Both the position numbers and the translations under genes were made by a program. A DNA stretch of 64,000 bases from a virus. Below are positions 4,320-57,794 of the stretch, piece after piece. Positions within the stretch are counted from its first letter, which is position 1, and every line of letters starts with the position of its first letter. The notes beneath the pieces were generated by a model. The model ran no database searches, was not told the DNA's origin, and saw only the letters and a list, made by a program, of their open reading frames with translations. The stretch lies in IMG/VR virus record IMGVR_UViG_3300011116_000709, positions 1 to 64,000 of that record, one strand, 5' to 3'.

Positions 4320-5510
4320 TTAGTCCTTGCTCTTGCTCATGGACTTGAGGTACGCCTCCATGAGCGGAGAAGCCTCTTCGGAACCTTCCTCGTAGGACTC
4401 TTCAAGAGACTCCTCTTCGGTGGCGGTTTCGGTTGTGGTTCCGATCTTCTCAATGTTCTCGCGGAGAACAGAGAGTTTCTCGGCAAACTGCTCTACGGAC
4501 TCAAACTCAACGCTCTCAGCGAGATCGCGTAGTTTCTGAGTCTCGGTGTCGGTTAGCCCTTCGGCTAGTTCGCGGAACAGGAGTTCGCAACGGAGTTGTT
4601 CGCACTCTTCGTTGATCTCCATGTTCTTGGAAACCTGCTCGTCTAGTTCACTCTTGAGGCTCTCGTAGTCCTCAACGGTGGACTCAAACAGATCAAGTTT
4701 CTCTTCGGGAATTTCAATGTACGACTCGGCAAACACGCCCTTGAGACGCTCAATGAATCCTTCGGTGATCTCGGTGCGAAGACCGTTGGCTACTGCAAGA
4801 CGGTTCTCCTGCATCCACTCTTCCACCACATAGTTGAGGTACTCGTCAATACGCTCAACCATTTCTTCGGTGACGGCGAGGGTGTGCTCTTCTAGGAGAG
4901 TCTCGTACTTGCCCTGTAGTTCCTCTTCGATCTCGCTTGTGCGAGAAGCGAGTTGAGCCTCAAACAAGGTTGCAGCCTCGCTCATAAACTCTTCGCTGAG
5001 TTCCTTGCCAGCGAACAAGGTTTCAATGCTCTCCTTCATGGAGGGCTTCTCTACCTTGCCGTTGGCATCGCTCTTCTTAGCCTTGATGGTTCCCATGTTC
5101 TTGCCAGCGTTGGCGTTGTGGGGTTCAGCAATCTTCTGACCCTTCTTGTTTGCGTCATGGGCAATATCAGTGCTAGAGAAATCAGAAGCGGCTTCCTTCA
5201 TGGACTTCTTGGAAGGCGTTTCGTCTTCCTCTTCGTCCTCCTCTTCCTCTTCTTCAGAGTCTTCCTCTTCTTCGTCCTTCTTGCTTTTCTTGGAGAACTT
5301 CTTGTACTTGTCCTCAGAGGCATCATCGTCCACATAAGTGCCTTCTTCTAGTTCACCTTCGTACTCCTCTTCCACGATCTCCTCCTCAACAACCTCTTCT
5401 TCGGCTTCGATAGCCTCGGTGGGTTCTTCGGTGGGTTCGGGGTTCTCTGCGAGGAAGCCTTCGCCTAGAATTACCTTCTTGATTACATCTTCGATCTTTT
5501 CGTTAGCCAT
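4320..5510 (-). CDS. 22: prohead core scaffolding protein gp22
   Basis: Scaffold protein that forms the inner core for gp23 assembly and is degraded by gp21 during maturation. The 396-aa protein is longer than T4 gp22 (269) because of an extremely acidic N-terminal segment (about residues 15-100, runs of Glu and Asp mixed with Lys-rich patches). The C-terminal ~240 residues carry the helical family core, including YLNYVVEEWMQENRLAVANG and the following GLRTEITEGFIERLKGVF. The C-terminus is acidic then basic (KSMSKSKD). ATG at 5510 with AAAGGAG 11 nt upstream. Order gp21-gp22-gp23 is as in T4. Confidence 0.92.
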   Translation of the reverse strand: MANEKIEDVIKKVILGEGFLAENPEPTEEPTEAIEAEEEVVEEEIVEEEYEGELEEGTYVDDDASEDKYKKFSKKSKKDEEEEDSEEEEEEDEEEDETPSKKSMKEAASDFSSTDIAHDANKKGQKIAEPHNANAGKNMGTIKAKKSDANGKVEKPSMKESIETLFAGKELSEEFMSEAATLFEAQLASRTSEIEEELQGKYETLLEEHTLAVTEEMVERIDEYLNYVVEEWMQENRLAVANGLRTEITEGFIERLKGVFAESYIEIPEEKLDLFESTVEDYESLKSELDEQVSKNMEINEECEQLRCELLFRELAEGLTDTETQKLRDLAESVEFESVEQFAEKLSVLRENIEKIGTTTETATEEESLEESYEEGSEEASPLMEAYLKSMSKSKD

Positions 5511-47532: not shown

Positions 47533-48125
47533 TTGAACAAAAACAAGTAAAAGAACTGCAAGAACTACTGCAAGAAACTGTTGCGGGGCTTGGTGGAACC
47601 GACCAATCGTATCTGCAACTACTAAAATATTTGAACGGCATCGGAGAGTTGCGAATTCCTTCACGGCTCATGGCAGGGCAGATGGTATTTTTTAAATACA
47701 AACCACAAGACGACAGGTTTCTAGGCTCATCCAAAGCGTATGATGTGTTTCCCCTAGTAATAATAACAAAGGTACACAAAGACGGATTTGAAGGGCTAAA
47801 TCTGCACTACATTGCCCACAAGTGGAGACGGCAACTGTTTACGGCTATTGAAAAAAGCCTGCCCATGAAAAAGAGCGGAGACAAATCACTTACCCGTTTG
47901 GGGGTATCATATGATCGCTTGAATGGGCCTAGAAGATTTGGCTTCTTCAAGCCATGCTACCGACGATATGTAATAGGTGGGCTTCGCAAGCGTCCGATTC
48001 AAATACCTATGGAATTTTGGGATGTGTTGGTTGATGTGGATTTGGCTCTGTTTGTAAAGGGGCGGAAGATGGGTATTCGTCGTATGTCATACAACTCGTA
48101 TGTGCAATCAGGAAACAATCCATGA
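47529..48125 (+). CDS. conserved T4-type phage protein, 198 aa (possible DNA end/neck protein)
   Basis: A basic protein with the conserved pattern KYKPQDDRFLGSSKAYDVFP, then LVIITKVHKDGFEGLNLHYI and a C-terminal FGFFKPCYRRYVIGGLRKRP / IPMEFWDVLV. I recall this pattern from many T4-superfamily phages, where it lies beside gp4, but cannot name a proven function; a gp2-type DNA end-protector role is possible from position. The ATG at 47529 overlaps the gp4 stop (ATGA); a longer reading frame from 47445 lies inside gp4 and is rejected. It overlaps gp54 by 4 nt. Confidence 0.7.
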   Translation: MIEQKQVKELQELLQETVAGLGGTDQSYLQLLKYLNGIGELRIPSRLMAGQMVFFKYKPQDDRFLGSSKAYDVFPLVIITKVHKDGFEGLNLHYIAHKWRRQLFTAIEKSLPMKKSGDKSLTRLGVSYDRLNGPRRFGFFKPCYRRYVIGGLRKRPIQIPMEFWDVLVDVDLALFVKGRKMGIRRMSYNSYVQSGNNP

Positions 48126-48877
48126 CTTACATTCCTTCAAACATAAACGAAATGATGGGCGAAATCTATCGGGACAGCCTGATATACGCCAATCGTTTTG
48201 AAATGGTGATAAACACCCCTGCAATATTTGCGTATCGCCCAGCATCTCAAAAGCAGATGACTCTGCGTTGCAACTCTGCATCTATTCCCGGCAGATCGCT
48301 GACAACGCAGAACTACAGATTCTATGGGCCACAACGACAGTTTCCAACCGAACCTTTGTATTCGGGTGATCTTGCTCTAACTTATATTCTGTCTGCTGAT
48401 CTAAAAGAACGAGCATATTTTGAAGAATGGTTAAATTTCATTTGCAATCCATCAAACTACAAGTTTTCATTCTATGATGAGTACACCACATCAGGAGTGA
48501 TAAACATTCTAGACAAAACAGATCAAGTTGTATACTCTGCAACCATTGAAGAGATGTATCCCAAACAAATTGGAGAAATTGCTCTAGGGTACGAAAAAGA
48601 CAATGAGTTTTTGACTCAAGACATAGTTCTTGCGTACAGAAAATACACACCGGCAACCACAGCAGTTTCAAATCCACCAACAACAAGCCAAGCAGCGGCA
48701 GCACAACAACTAACACCTTCTGGACTGATACCACCACAGTTCTCTCAATTCCTACGCCCATTACAACAGACTGCTTCACGAGTACAGCAAGTTTTTGGTA
48801 TAGATCCCAAAACAGGACGAGTAAACAGATACGGAAGCGATGGCAGCGTAAACGGAGTAATAAACGGTCAAGGTTGA
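48122..48877 (+). CDS. 54: baseplate-tail tube junction protein gp54
   Basis: Tube-fold protein at the base of the tail tube on which gp48 and gp19 assemble. Signature residues: ANRFEMVINTPAIFAYRPAS, MTLRCNSASIPGRSLTTQNY, FYGPQRQFPTEPLYSGDLAL, and ERAYFEEWLNFICNPSNYKF ending with DIVLAYRKYTP. The 251-aa length is shorter than T4 gp54 (320), and a Gln/Ala/Thr-rich C-terminal tail follows. gp54 and gp48 share the fold; the missing N-terminal helical part makes gp54 the better match. ATG at 48122 overlaps the preceding gene. Confidence 0.8.
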   Translation: MTYIPSNINEMMGEIYRDSLIYANRFEMVINTPAIFAYRPASQKQMTLRCNSASIPGRSLTTQNYRFYGPQRQFPTEPLYSGDLALTYILSADLKERAYFEEWLNFICNPSNYKFSFYDEYTTSGVINILDKTDQVVYSATIEEMYPKQIGEIALGYEKDNEFLTQDIVLAYRKYTPATTAVSNPPTTSQAAAAQQLTPSGLIPPQFSQFLRPLQQTASRVQQVFGIDPKTGRVNRYGSDGSVNGVINGQG

Positions 48878-48915: not shown

Positions 48916-49626
48916 ATGGAAAAACTGAAACTGATTCCTTCGCAAGTGCCGTCGTATACCATGACTCTGCCCGTATCAGGGATTGTGGCAAAATACAGAC
49001 CATTCCTAGTCAAAGAAGAAAAAGTACTACTCGTAGCCGCACAGTCTGGTGACATGAATCAGATAGTGGACGCTATGCGTAATATCATTTCTGCGTGCAC
49101 CAACGGGCTACTAGACACTAAAAAACTGTGCACAGCCGATTCAGAGTATGCGTTTTTACAAATACGCATGAAGTCTGTGGGAGAAGAAGTCAAACCCCAA
49201 ATTACCTGCTCCAAGTGCAACAACAAGACCAGCATAAAGATCAATCTGCAAGAGGTAAAGGTAAAGAAGGTTGAGAAAGAAGCGGTTGATTCCACAGTAA
49301 AGATAACCGACAACATATCATTGGTTCTTCGGTATCCGTCCATGCACGATGTGGACTACAGCAAAACCGAAATTGACGCTATCTTTGGTGTGGCTAAAGA
49401 TTGTATTGAAAGCGTAATATTTGACGATGCTGTTCATAGCCACGACGAGATTGATCCAAAGGAGTTGTCAGACTTTGTGGACAATCTGCTACCCGAGCAA
49501 TTTGAGCAGATAATGAAATTTGTCAAAACCACTCCTGAACTCCACTACTCCTTTAAATACATCTGCCCGTCTTGCAAGGAAAAGGTGGAAACGGAGGTGA
49601 AGTCTGTCTCCGATTTTTTTCAATAG
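48916..49626 (+). CDS. gp26-like baseplate hub protein (0-frame product)
   Basis: A 236-aa protein of the T4 baseplate hub gp26 type (T4 gp26, 208 aa). The N-terminus (LIPSQVPSYTMTLPVSGIVA, KYRPFLVKEEKVLLVAAQSG) and the segment GLLDTKKLCTADSEYAFLQI are typical. It carries two Cys pairs, CSKC (about residue 98) and CPSC (about 218), suggesting a zinc ribbon. The ATG at 48916 is preceded by CGGAG; a TTG at 48901 is rejected. The gene ends in GAT TTT TTT CAA TAG, a slippery site that would allow a -1 frameshift into the next reading frame. Confidence 0.8.
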   Translation: MEKLKLIPSQVPSYTMTLPVSGIVAKYRPFLVKEEKVLLVAAQSGDMNQIVDAMRNIISACTNGLLDTKKLCTADSEYAFLQIRMKSVGEEVKPQITCSKCNNKTSIKINLQEVKVKKVEKEAVDSTVKITDNISLVLRYPSMHDVDYSKTEIDAIFGVAKDCIESVIFDDAVHSHDEIDPKELSDFVDNLLPEQFEQIMKFVKTTPELHYSFKYICPSCKEKVETEVKSVSDFFQ

Positions 49627-49808
49627 CACTCTGCCATAACACACTGGCAGCGTATTATAACACTAATTTTTCACTAATGCAGCACCACAAGTACTCTCTA
49701 TCTGAAATAGAGAACCTACTGCCTTGGGAGCGTGAAGTATACATAAATTTGTTAATACAATTCTTGAAAGAAGAGAAAGAACGAGCCAAACGACAAGGGC
49801 ATCAGTAA
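48916..49808 (+). CDS. predicted -1 frameshift fusion: gp26-like + 62-aa extension
   Basis: Reading 48916-49620 and then re-reading base 49620 in the -1 frame to the TAA at 49806-49808 gives a 297-aa fusion. The extension begins SIALCHNTLAAYYNTNF and contains SLSEIENLLPWEREVYINLL, which looks protein-like and, as I recall, is conserved in T4-type phages. The downstream frame has no ribosome binding site before its only ATG (49678), yet is open through the overlap. It ends directly at the tape measure ATG (TAAATG). This is the arrangement of tail assembly chaperone pairs (lambda G/GT). The frameshift itself is inferred from sequence. Confidence 0.72.
49614..49650 (+). promoter_or_regulatory. 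-1 ribosomal frameshift signal
   Basis: The heptamer T_TTT_TTT (49614-49620) is in register with the gp26-like frame. After a 10-nt spacer that contains the 0-frame TAG comes a 6-bp perfect stem CTGCCA/TGGCAG (49631-49636 and 49645-49650) with an 8-nt loop, extendable by two outer pairs across a mismatch. Confidence 0.75.
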
Positions 49809-52106
49809 ATGGCAAAAAAAGGTTCAGGTAGGGGAAGACGAGGTGCTGTTCCACGAGTAGGTGGACGGTTTGCCAAAACCACACCCGTAACCGTGACTCC
49901 ACCTACACCTCCTGCGGCAACTGTTGAATCCGCAGCAGTAGAGGTTGATAAAAAAATTGGTATTCTGGAAGCCCTGTTAGAAAAACAAAAAGAACTAACT
50001 GGCGGCGAAACCGAACTGTCTACGGCTGTTCTTGGCAAAGGCGGAACCAAAGGCGTTCGTGCTCAAATTGAAGATTTGGTACGAGAAAACCGAGAGCGTC
50101 TTCAAGACCTAGACGATCCCAATAACGCTGCTAATTTTGCTGTTATTGAATCTGCACTTGCTCTATCTGAACGAGCGGTTCGCTCCAAAGACCGAAAAGA
50201 ACAAGTAGACATATACAATAAACTAAAATTCATAAGACAGGTTGCGGAGAAAACCACAGGTGAAAAATCTGATATTACTCAAAAAGTATCAGAGATAATC
50301 AAACCTGTTGAAACTGTTCTTCAAAGAAAAACAGGATTTGCTGCATTTGCCAAAGAACGATTTGCAGAAAAAGTAAAGGCTGTTCCCGAAGCCGTAGTTC
50401 GTCAAATTCCTCTGGTTGGGGGATTGATTGGTGATTACCTGCAAGAAAAACGAGCAGGGCGTGAAGAACTAGAGGCTTATGCAGGAAGACGGATTGAAAG
50501 TATTTCTCAAGCAGGCAGCAAAACCAACGAACTAGAACGAATCCTCACAGGAAGAGGAGGTGGAGGTGGTGGTCTTCCTCCGTTTAGAGGAGCGTCTACA
50601 GTAGGAGGAATGTTTGGTGGTGCTGCTGGTGCTGGTCTAGCAGGAATAGCAGCAGGAGACAAAGGCACACTTGGTCAGATTGCAGCGGATGTACGAGCCA
50701 TCAAAGACCGAATCGTTACCAAACGATCAGGCACAGAAGGATTAAAAGAAAAAGAGTCCGCACTAAAGGCTGTTGCTTCTGCTGCCAAAAGTGACGAGAA
50801 ACAAAAAGGATTGTTTGGTGGGTTAGGTAAAACCTTGTCGGGGCTTTTGGGTGGAGGTGGCTTATTAGGAATGCTTGGTGGAATGTTTGGAATGGGAGGT
50901 GGAGGTGGAGCAGATGGACAACCCGGAATAATGTCATCTGTAACAGATTGGGCAACCGATAAAGCAACCGATTGGGGATTAAAGAAAGCATGGCAAGGCA
51001 CTAAAAATGTGGCATCCAAAGCATGGCAAGGCACTAAAGGACTTGCATCAAAAGCATGGCAAGGCACTAAAGGACTTGCATCAAAAGCATGGCAGGGAAC
51101 AAAATCTATGCTTGGATTTGGTGCTAATGCTGGTGAAAGTGCTGCAAAGGGTGCTGTTAGTGCTGCTGAAAGTGCGGCTGGTGGTGCTGCAAAGGGTGCT
51201 GTTAGTGCTGCTGAAAGTGCGGCTGGTGGTGCTGCAAAGGGTGCTGTTAGTGCTGCTGAAACAGTTGCAGAAAATAAGTCGTGGTGGAAAAGTGCATGGG
51301 AAGGCACTAAAAACATGGCATCTAAAGGATGGGAAGGTGCAAAATCTGCTGGAAGTGCTACATGGGAGGCGGGAAAAGCCGTAGCAAGCGAAGCAGCAGC
51401 AGTAGCAGAAGCCGTAGCACATCCAACCACTTTTTTGAAAGGAAATATGGGCAAAATTTTGGGCGGGATGAAATCTCTTGGCCCAATTACTGCTGCTCTT
51501 GAAGGACTTATAGGTGCATTTAATATTTACAGCATCAAGAATGATCCTAATCTTGGACCAGAAGAAAAGAAAGAAGCCATCGGAGCAGAAATAGCAAAAC
51601 GGTTTGGTTCTGCTATTGGAGGAATAATTGGAGGTGGTCTTGGAACCGCTATTGGGCCAGTTGGAACTGTTCTCGGTGGATTGGCTGGTGCTCTTGGTGG
51701 AGAGTGGGTAGGCAATCAAATCGCTGATTTGGTAGGACCAAAAGGCATATATGATTTTGTCGCATCAATACCCGCAGTAGGCGATCTTATAAAAGTAGAT
51801 GGTGGAACTCCGTCTGCAACACCAGAAGGATCAACAGCAACAGGAAGTATTTCACCCACACCAACATCAGCAACACCCGCAGGACAGCAGGCAAATGCTA
51901 TGGAAATGAATCGTCGCGGAGTAGAAGAAGTACGAGATTATGCTGCAAAACAATCTCAAGCACAGGCAGCATTTGTAAGCCAACAAAGAACAGCAGCAGC
52001 AAACATGTACAATCAAAACAATACAGTTGTAAACAATTATAATGACGATCTGCGTGTTCGCAACAGCGAATCTACTCTAAAAAACATGGAGCGTAGCACT
52101 CTATAA
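49809..52106 (+). CDS. tail tape measure protein (gp29-like)
   Basis: A 765-aa protein that would set tail length and be ejected ahead of DNA. It starts with a basic Gly/Arg-rich segment (KKGSGRGRRGAVPR), then helices, several Gly-rich hydrophobic stretches (about residues 340-360 and 600-645, the latter GGIIGGGLGTAIGPVGTVLG), and two tandem repeats (11-aa AWQGTK units and 15-aa AAKGAVSAAESAAGG units). It ends in a Gln/Asn-rich tail. T4 gp29 is 590 aa. Position directly after the frameshift pair, length and hydrophobic pattern support the call; there is no single diagnostic motif. ATG abuts the TAA of the frameshift extension. Confidence 0.82.
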   Translation: MAKKGSGRGRRGAVPRVGGRFAKTTPVTVTPPTPPAATVESAAVEVDKKIGILEALLEKQKELTGGETELSTAVLGKGGTKGVRAQIEDLVRENRERLQDLDDPNNAANFAVIESALALSERAVRSKDRKEQVDIYNKLKFIRQVAEKTTGEKSDITQKVSEIIKPVETVLQRKTGFAAFAKERFAEKVKAVPEAVVRQIPLVGGLIGDYLQEKRAGREELEAYAGRRIESISQAGSKTNELERILTGRGGGGGGLPPFRGASTVGGMFGGAAGAGLAGIAAGDKGTLGQIAADVRAIKDRIVTKRSGTEGLKEKESALKAVASAAKSDEKQKGLFGGLGKTLSGLLGGGGLLGMLGGMFGMGGGGGADGQPGIMSSVTDWATDKATDWGLKKAWQGTKNVASKAWQGTKGLASKAWQGTKGLASKAWQGTKSMLGFGANAGESAAKGAVSAAESAAGGAAKGAVSAAESAAGGAAKGAVSAAETVAENKSWWKSAWEGTKNMASKGWEGAKSAGSATWEAGKAVASEAAAVAEAVAHPTTFLKGNMGKILGGMKSLGPITAALEGLIGAFNIYSIKNDPNLGPEEKKEAIGAEIAKRFGSAIGGIIGGGLGTAIGPVGTVLGGLAGALGGEWVGNQIADLVGPKGIYDFVASIPAVGDLIKVDGGTPSATPEGSTATGSISPTPTSATPAGQQANAMEMNRRGVEEVRDYAAKQSQAQAAFVSQQRTAAANMYNQNNTVVNNYNDDLRVRNSESTLKNMERSTL
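50988..51119 (+). repeat. 33-bp tandem repeat in tape measure gene
   Basis: Four copies of a 33-bp unit starting with GCATGGCA(A/G)GG at 50988, 51021, 51054 and 51087, in frame, encoding the 11-residue unit AWQGTKGLASK. The two middle copies are nearly identical at DNA level, suggesting recent duplication. Confidence 0.85.
51141..51262 (+). repeat. 45-bp tandem repeat in tape measure gene
   Basis: Copies of a 45-bp unit begin GCTGCAAAGGGTGCTG at 51141, 51186 and 51231, with the third partial. They encode the 15-residue unit AAKGAVSAAESAAGG. The first two copies are essentially identical. Confidence 0.85.
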
Positions 52107-57239: not shown

Positions 57240-57291
57240 ACTGGTATATTGGCTTGGAAACAGGCTTGAACAGGTTCTTTACAAACAAAAA

Positions 57292-57362
57292 TTCCTTCGC
57301 TTGGATTCGAACCAAGACAAGGAGGACCAAAATCTCCGGTGCTACCGTTACACCACGAAGGA
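57292..57362 (-). tRNA. tRNA-Gln (anticodon UUG)
   Basis: Acceptor TCCTTCG/CGAAGGA, D-arm GTGT...GCAC, anticodon loop TTTTGGT giving UUG, T-arm CTTGG/CCAAG with TTCGAAT loop, discriminator A; CCA is not encoded. The last anticodon-stem pair (31-39) is A-C, a mismatch. The next tRNA lies 1 nt away. Confidence 0.88.
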
Positions 57363-57363
57363 A

Positions 57364-57435
57364 CTGGCTCGGCTGGATTCGAACCAGCAACCAACAAATT
57401 AACAGTTTGCCGCACTACCGTTGTGCTACGAGCCA
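57364..57435 (-). tRNA. tRNA-Asn (anticodon GUU)
   Basis: Acceptor TGGCTCG/CGAGCCA, D-arm GCAC...GTGC, anticodon stem GCAAA/TTTGT with loop CTGTTAA (GUU), T-arm GCTGG/CCAGC, discriminator G as expected for Asn. CCA not encoded. Confidence 0.93.
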
Positions 57436-57441
57436 AAGCAG

Positions 57442-57528
57442 CGGGCAAGGTGGGATTCGAACCCACGATACGATTACTCGTATACAGCATTTCCAATGCT
57501 GCTCCTTCAACCGCTCGGACACCTGCCC
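57442..57528 (-). tRNA. tRNA-Ser (anticodon GGA)
   Basis: Acceptor GGGCAGG/CTTGCCC, anticodon stem CAGCA/TGCTG with loop TTGGAAA (GGA), a long class II variable arm (TACGAGTAATCGTA hairpin), T-arm GTGGG/CCCAC, discriminator G. CCA not encoded. Confidence 0.93.
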
Positions 57529-57533
57529 TGAAA

Positions 57534-57698
57534 TCAGATGCCCTTTTCAGCCTTTACCCAAGCAGGAAGACGATCTTGTGCTTCCAGTTTGCGAAGGGTT
57601 TCCTTTTTGGCATTCAGTAGTTGTGCTTGACGAGCCTTCTTGCGGGACTCGTAGCGACGCTTCCGACGACGATTCAATTCACGAAACTTGTTTACCAT
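57534..57698 (-). CDS. small basic protein inside tRNA cluster, 54 aa
   Basis: An ATG at 57698 preceded by AAGGAG opens a 54-codon frame ending TGA at 57534, between tRNA-Ser and tRNA-Glu. The protein is very basic: NKFRELNRRRKRRYESRKKA, then RQAQLLNAKKETLRKLEAQD and a Trp near the end (LPAWVKAEKGI). It looks like a single amphipathic helix that could bind nucleic acid. No known family is recognised. The good ribosome binding site and the exact fit between tRNAs support it being real. Confidence 0.72.
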   Translation of the reverse strand: MVNKFRELNRRRKRRYESRKKARQAQLLNAKKETLRKLEAQDRLPAWVKAEKGI

Positions 57699-57721
57699 TT
57701 TAGTGTTCTCCTTGTGTTGAG

Positions 57722-57794
57722 TGAGCCTACGGAGATTCGAACTCCGGTCAAGAGGATGAAAGCCTCCTATCCTAGACCACTAGACGATAGGCCC
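57722..57794 (-). tRNA. tRNA-Glu (anticodon UUC)
   Basis: Acceptor GGGCCTA/TAGGCTC (one G-T pair), anticodon stem GGAGG/CCTCT with loop CTTTCAT (UUC), T-arm CCGGA/TCTCC-type with TTCGAAT loop, discriminator A. First tRNA of the four-tRNA cluster. Confidence 0.92.

What the first reader, a model, noticed from the sequence alone, without database searches (positions are those of the whole stretch)
48916..49808. -1 programmed frameshift in the gp26-like hub gene, just upstream of the tape measure
The gene ends GAT TTT TTT CAA TAG. T_TTT_TTT is an in-register slippery heptamer, followed after 10 nt by the perfect stem CTGCCA/TGGCAG. The -1 frame is open across the overlap and encodes 62 further protein-like residues (SEIENLLPWEREVYINLL) ending exactly at the tape measure ATG, and it has no ribosome binding site of its own. 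This is the G/GT tail-chaperone layout of lambda-type phages, which I do not know to be described for the T4 hub genes. It suggests that gp26/gp51-type hub proteins may be the T4-side equivalent of tail assembly chaperones.
Basis: partly seen in the sequence, partly recalled or inferred. Interest (0 to 1): 0.92.

Follow-up and report, generated by a model that had tools for sequence, protein, structure and literature searches.

The report
Frameshifted tail chaperone of T4-like phage
In this T4-like phage the ribosome very probably slips back one base near the end of the gp26-type gene to make a second, longer tail-assembly chaperone; the layout is real and strongly conserved, but chaperones of this kind in T4-like phages were already described in 2022.

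Summary
The gp26-type gene (48916-49626) ends GAT TTT TTT CAA TAG. The -1 frame runs 62 residues from the slip to TAA 49806-49808, directly before the tape-measure ATG. In 81 of 81 loci (window plus the 80 best IMG/VR relatives) an in-register T_TTT_TT(C/T/A) heptamer precedes the 0-frame stop and a 53-70-residue -1 extension follows. Among 68 non-redundant loci the extension evolves as protein from its first codon, and the heptamer exceeds what codon bias predicts. So -1 programmed frameshifting is the best explanation. T4 gp26 aligns with the short product. T4 gp51 aligns end to end with the predicted long product, so T4 keeps as two genes what these phages make from one. The N-terminal domain resembles the HK97 tail assembly chaperone (Z 6.2). 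This is not new in kind: Vladimirov, Gautam and Davidson (Virology 2022) identified T4-like tail assembly chaperones, and papers citing them describe poly-T slippery sites and the T4 two-gene variant. New here: this member, a conserved upstream Shine-Dalgarno-like element, and relatives lacking the heptamer. No experiment was possible.

The parts
48916..49626 (+). Short tail assembly chaperone (TAC-N), gp26 type, 236 aa, 0 frame
   Evidence: PF12322 E 2.4e-57; PHROG 150 E 2.3e-58; model pLDDT 93.8; 80 IMG/VR relatives kept
49593..49600 (+). Shine-Dalgarno-like GGAGGTGA inside the gene, ending 13 nt before the heptamer; probable frameshift stimulator
   Evidence: 8-base match to the anti-SD complement; family-wide enrichment and synonymous bias
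49614..49620 (+). Slippery heptamer T_TTT_TTT, in register with the 0 frame
   Evidence: T_TTT_TT(C/T/A) in 81 of 81 loci
49624..49626 (+). 0-frame stop TAG, one codon after the heptamer
49631..49650 (+). Hairpin CTGCCA - 8-nt loop - TGGCAG, 10 nt after the heptamer; possible frameshift stimulator
   Evidence: moderate family-wide support only
49620..49808 (+). -1-frame extension, 62 aa plus TAA (gp51-type C-terminal domain; with 48916-49620 it makes the long form, TAC-NC)
   Evidence: PHROG 634 E 1.7e-28; codon-position pattern and absence of stops across relatives; PHROG 150 matches in two adjoining frames, 48931-49632 and 49611-49757
49809..52106 (+). Tape measure protein (context; the presumed client of the chaperones)
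   Evidence: PHROG 1272 tail length tape measure protein, E 2.5e-8

Best explanation
The locus encodes the two tail assembly chaperones of a T4-like myovirus from one gene. Most ribosomes stop at TAG 49624 and make the 236-residue short form (gp26 type, TAC-N). A minority slip back one base on T_TTT_TTT, probably helped by the upstream GGAGGTGA pairing with 16S rRNA and by the downstream hairpin, and add 62 residues to give the long form (TAC-NC). By analogy with lambda gpG/gpGT, the short form should coat the tape measure protein encoded next door, and the rare long form should bring in tail-tube subunits. Shown by sequence: site, frame, purifying selection on the -1 frame, homology to T4 gp26 and gp51. 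Supported but not proven: TAC-like N-terminal fold. Inferred: slippage itself, its efficiency, the stimulators, and client binding.
For: (1) 81 of 81 loci keep the heptamer in register 0-8 codons before the stop and a -1 extension of 53-70 aa. (2) In 68 loci under 80% identical, the codon before the first TTT ends in T in 68 of 68 (expected 61% from codon use) and the first Phe codon is TTT in 68 of 68 (75% elsewhere in the genes); naive log10 P -15.1 and -8.4, ignoring relatedness. (3) The -1 frame upstream of the internal Met is protein coding: 93/48/212 changes at codon positions 1/2/3 in 34 close pairs; over the whole extension 0 stops in the -1 frame against 445 and 374 in the other two. 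(4) Separate initiation is disfavoured: 75 of 81 have no ATG/GTG/TTG in the -1 frame upstream of the slip, 40 of 81 have a -1 stop within 15 nt upstream, and the internal Met is present in 49 of 68. (5) T4 gp51 aligns with the predicted fusion over 245 columns (E 7e-12); T4 gp26 aligns up to the slip site (E 3.3e-22). (6) 13 of 18 GenBank loci examined carry T_TTT_TT(C/T), including Kyanoviridae and Straboviridae outside the T-evens. (7) SD-like element: match of 4 or more bases in 63 of 68 (background 41%); Glu codon GAG in 30 of 40 Glu-Gly pairs beside the site against 8 of 39 elsewhere, P 1.4e-6. (8) Rbstp2171 3FGX (Z 6.9) and HK97 chaperone 2OB9 (Z 6.2) are the only PDB entries with Z above 2.2.
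Against: No frameshift product has been seen. 49 of 68 keep an internal Met, so some separate translation of the extension is not excluded. The downstream stem is not universal, and perfect-stem counts match some control offsets. 5 of 18 GenBank loci lack the heptamer: T4, ECO07P2, two Ackermannviridae and Vibrio phage K393. The Z scores are under 8, which the tool says may mean only a common arrangement. The 80 relatives are the best of at least 596, not a random draw.
Confidence: 0.92

Rival explanations
1. The -1 ORF is a separate small gene ('gp51, baseplate hub assembly catalyst') translated from its own start, as most records annotate it.
For: 8 of the 13 GenBank loci with the heptamer annotate a separate small ORF and none a joined gene. 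An ATG at 49678 lies in the window, and a Met sits at that column in 49 of 68 loci.
Against: Conserved -1-frame protein begins at the slip, before the Met. About half the loci (40 of 81) have a -1 stop within 15 nt upstream, and 75 of 81 have no upstream start. The Met is replaced by Ile, Val, Ala or Leu in 19 of 68. No Shine-Dalgarno precedes 49678 (by eye). T4 gp51 is a natural fusion of both halves.
Confidence: 0.05
2. Transcriptional slippage: RNA polymerase slips on the T run, so some mRNAs carry the fused frame.
For: The site is a run of T, 7 in the window.
Against: 54 of 81 heptamers end in C or A, mostly runs of only six T, short for efficient bacterial polymerase slippage (recalled). 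The heptamer register, the SD-like element at ribosomal spacing and the structure after the slip are translational features.
Confidence: 0.02
3. The T run and Phe-Phe are conserved only as protein, and the -1 ORF is chance or an assembly error.
For: Phe234-Phe235 are conserved at the protein end.
Against: Synonymous positions are fixed at the site, one locus (L058) keeps T_TTT_TTA with Phe changed to Leu, and the -1 frame is under selection in loci from many IMG/VR records.
Confidence: 0.01

Closest known systems
T4-like tail assembly chaperones TAC-N/TAC-NC (Vladimirov, Gautam and Davidson, Virology 2022)
   Same: Citing papers say poly-T slippery sites occur in TAC-N genes of T4-like phages and that some T4-likes carry a short gene plus a fused long gene. 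This locus fits the frameshifting branch.
   Different: Different phage. I could not read the paper, so I cannot say whether the SD-like element or the heptamer-less relatives were noted there.
Phage lambda gpG/gpGT
   Same: -1 shift near the 3' end of a tail chaperone gene, short product plus rare long product that act on the tape measure protein (review passages).
   Different: T6-7 heptamer rather than lambda's site (lambda's is recalled); stop one codon after the slip; a longer short form with a C-terminal half carrying CxxC pairs; no sequence match to any solved structure.
Phage T4 gp26 and gp51
   Same: Homologous to the short and to the predicted long product respectively.
   Different: In T4 they are two separate, divergently transcribed genes and gene 26 ends GTTCTTTGAG with no slippery heptamer.
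Pseudomonas phage Adele / Vandenendeviridae tail chaperone (PMC12846349)
   Same: Comparative evidence for -1 frameshifting at a T run before the tape measure gene, with the extension misannotated (passages).
   Different: GTTTTT motif; different phage family.

Membership tests
Frameshifted tail assembly chaperone (lambda G/GT type, T4-like TAC-N/TAC-NC) | Gene lies immediately upstream of the tape measure gene | tested here: met
   -1 stop 49808, next ATG 49809; that ORF matches tape-measure PHROGs
[quoted passage not shown]
   81 of 81 loci
Frameshifted tail assembly chaperone (lambda G/GT type, T4-like TAC-N/TAC-NC) | Overlapping -1 ORF conserved as protein, without its own start | tested here: met
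   Codon-position pattern and stop counts; start survey
Frameshifted tail assembly chaperone (lambda G/GT type, T4-like TAC-N/TAC-NC) | TAC fold in the short form | tested here: inconclusive
   3FGX Z 6.9 and 2OB9 Z 6.2 over residues 1-98, next row 2.2; plain Foldseek E above 0.5 for all PDB chains
Frameshifted tail assembly chaperone (lambda G/GT type, T4-like TAC-N/TAC-NC) | Frameshift product made in vivo in a defined ratio | not testable with these tools
   Needs a reporter or proteomics
Frameshifted tail assembly chaperone (lambda G/GT type, T4-like TAC-N/TAC-NC) | Binds tape measure and tail tube protein; absent from the virion | not testable with these tools
   For T4, gp51 is required for assembly but not in the particle (review passage)
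T4 gp26 / gp51 family | Short form matches gp26; long form matches gp51 end to end | tested here: met
   PF12322; hhalign; T4 gp51 matches PHROG 150 over residues 3-248
T4 two-gene arrangement | A second, full-length long-form gene in the genome | tested here: not met
   PHROG 150 and the extension are found only at this locus in the 67,972-base record, which may be incomplete

The most novel reading that the evidence does not exclude
The frameshift signal of this family is a three-part, dnaX-like device: an internal Shine-Dalgarno element about 8-13 nt upstream, the T6-7 heptamer, and a stem about 10 nt downstream. It is ancestral to T4-like tails. The T-evens replaced it by gene duplication (gp26 plus gp51), and Ackermannviridae and Vibrio phage K393-type phages by a different site (TTTTC, no heptamer), so one chaperone pair has been kept through at least three expression modes.
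Probability: 0.45. Interest if true: 0.45.

Novelty: new member of a known kind. Interest (0 to 1): 0.3.

Why it matters
It independently supports, across uncultured T4-like phages, that gp26/gp51 'hub' proteins are tail assembly chaperones, and explains why cyanophage 'gp51' looks truncated (noted in 2010 as about 20% of the length of other gp51 proteins, passages): it is the C-terminal half of a frameshift product. The GenBank records examined annotate the two halves as separate genes or miss the second, so the real long protein is absent from them. The SD-like element and the heptamer-less relatives give directly testable differences in how the same protein ratio is set.

Tried and rejected
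Independent translation, transcriptional slippage and chance were considered (see rivals). The downstream stem as a universal feature was not upheld: the window's exact pair positions are paired in 56% of cells over 68 loci, against 52% in shuffled partners and 28-50% when slid. A search for relatives of the Vibrio K393 gene in IMG/VR found none. Rfam gave nothing meaningful at the site (one SNORD75 hit far below its gathering score). No solved structure matches by sequence, and plain Foldseek against the PDB gave no significant hit. T4 gp28 was tested as a further relative and does not align. A script stopped with an error after printing part of its counts and was completed. Literature: six searches listed no open-access paper on this site in cyanophage-type phages apart from the citing papers named here, judged from listings and the passages cited; one more search was for Rbstp2171. 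The 2022 Virology paper is not held. I recall its abstract as saying that frameshifting is conserved in several T4-like groups while T4 itself uses separate genes, which agrees with the citing passages.

Full report
What was checked. The window's gp26-type ORF runs 48916-49626 and ends GAT TTT TTT CAA TAG; the heptamer T_TTT_TTT is at 49614-49620 in register. Reading on in the -1 frame gives 62 residues to TAA 49806-49808, and the tape-measure ATG follows at 49809. T7 runs are depleted in the window, 4 against 26.7 expected, and this is the only in-frame T_TTT_TTH close to the end of a long ORF.

Context. The order is tail tube (48122-48877), this gene, tape measure (49809-52106), then gp32-type single-strand binding protein on the other strand; cyanophage P-SSM2 also has gp26 followed at once by a small 'gp51'. 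The short ORF product matches PF12322 and PHROG 150; the -1 product matches PHROG 634, 'baseplate hub assembly catalyst'. PHROG 150, which matches T4 gp51 over residues 3-248, matches the window's own record in two adjoining frames that meet at the heptamer: 48931-49632 and 49611-49757. There is no second copy in the 67,972-base record, which may be incomplete.

Comparative evidence. In all 81 loci, window included, an in-register heptamer lies 0-8 codons before the 0-frame stop: T_TTT_TTC in 52, TTT in 27, TTA in 2. All 81 have a closed -1 extension of 53-70 residues. In 40 of 81 a -1-frame stop lies within 15 nt upstream of the heptamer, and in 75 of 81 no ATG, GTG or TTG lies in the -1 frame before the slip, so the conserved extension usually cannot be reached by starting upstream. 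Thirteen of the 81 were dropped as 80% or more identical to another, leaving 68. In these the codon before the first TTT ends in T in 68 of 68 (61% expected) and the first Phe codon is TTT in 68 of 68 (75% elsewhere); relatedness is ignored in the naive probabilities. Between the slip and the internal Met, changes in 34 close pairs (drawn from all 81) fall 93/48/212 on codon positions 1/2/3 of the -1 frame. There are no -1 stops in the extension, against 445 and 374 in the other frames. The internal Met is present in only 49 of 68.

Signals around the site. The 40 nt from about 6 nt after the heptamer are more folded than synonymous resampling predicts (mean z -1.46, s.e.m. 0.21, against -0.30 to -0.53 at four control places), but perfect stems are no commoner than at some other offsets, so the stem is a likely but variable helper. 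Upstream, a Shine-Dalgarno-like match of 4 or more bases occurs within 30 nt in 63 of 68 loci (41% background), most often ending 10 nt (21 loci), 24 nt (11) or 8 nt (9) before the heptamer. The window has an 8-base match, 13 nt away. In Glu-Gly pairs just before the slip Glu is GAG in 30 of 40, against 8 of 39 in Glu-Gly elsewhere (Fisher P 1.4e-6; relatedness again ignored), so the element appears selected at the nucleotide level. This resembles the known E. coli dnaX signal (recalled).

T4 and other relatives. Profile alignment places T4 gp26 on the short form up to the slip (E 3.3e-22) and T4 gp51 along the whole predicted long form over 245 columns (E 7e-12); T4 gp28 does not align. T4 genes 26 and 51 are separate and divergent, and gene 26 has no heptamer. 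Of 18 GenBank loci read, 13 have T_TTT_TT(C/T) and a -1 extension: P-SSM2, HTVC008M, Ps15, LG08, Astolliot, VH7D, Cr30, avDM12-TAAL, 7757, Atu_ph04, Aswh_1, D481, C48C1. Five do not: T4, ECO07P2, Ds9CZ, MK-13, K393. None of the 18 annotates a joined gene (one record, 7757, has no annotation). For Ackermannviridae, 18 IMG/VR loci were fetched and the 13 with distinct junctions were printed; these share GA(A/G)ATTTTCAT(T/C)TAA with a conserved -1 extension and no heptamer. Three of the 13 have TAATG at the stop; the others have no start codon there. A shift on T_TTC is the simplest reading, unproven.

Structure. The short form is predicted with high confidence (pLDDT 93.8). Among 508 PDB chains re-aligned, only 3FGX (Z 6.9) and the HK97 tail assembly chaperone 2OB9 (Z 6.2) stand out, over residues 1-98; the next is 2.2. 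A 2022 paper treats both as tail assembly chaperones (passages). Z under 8 may mean only a common arrangement, so this supports but does not prove the fold. The extension alone is predicted helical at moderate confidence (pLDDT 78.8).

Prior knowledge. A 2016 review says G-T frameshifting is conserved in long-tailed phages 'except T4' (passages). In 2022 Vladimirov, Gautam and Davidson identified T4-like tail assembly chaperones. The paper is not held, so I rely on its title and on citing passages: PRFect says some T4-likes carry a short gene and a fused long gene, and the Adele paper says poly-T slippery sequences are known in TAC-N genes of T4-like phages. So the phenomenon is published, and this locus is a well-supported new member.

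Verdict. Observation confirmed and interpretation supported, novelty claim not. The remaining interest is in the SD-like element and in the lineages that express the same pair without the heptamer.

Noticed in passing
L094, L095, L100-L117 (Ackermannviridae): No T6 heptamer: the gene ends GA(A/G)ATTTTCAT(T/C)TAA and continues as a conserved -1 extension, mostly without a start codon. Possible T_TTC tetramer shift.
   Followed up: partly
L088 about 4580-4770 (Vibrio phage K393): Ends CTTTTCAAGTAATGG with no heptamer; its -1 extension matches PHROG 9633, as the Ackermannviridae extension does. TAATG could allow reinitiation.
   Followed up: partly
window 49593-49600 and 68 non-redundant loci: Shine-Dalgarno-like element upstream of the slip, enriched and biased at synonymous positions.
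   Followed up: yes
L058 3001-3699: Slippery site kept as T_TTT_TTA although the second Phe changed to Leu.
   Followed up: yes
window 48916-49626: Two CxxC pairs (CSKCNN, CPSCKE) with weak zinc-ribbon matches below the Pfam cut-offs; similar pairs in T4 gp26.
   Followed up: no
GenBank loci L083-L087, L089-L093, L097-L099: Among the 13 with the heptamer the -1 extension is a separate small gene in 8, absent in 4, and 1 record is unannotated; no joined gene.
   Followed up: yes
window 57291-57794: Cluster of four tRNA genes (Gln, Asn, Ser, Glu) on the minus strand.
   Followed up: no
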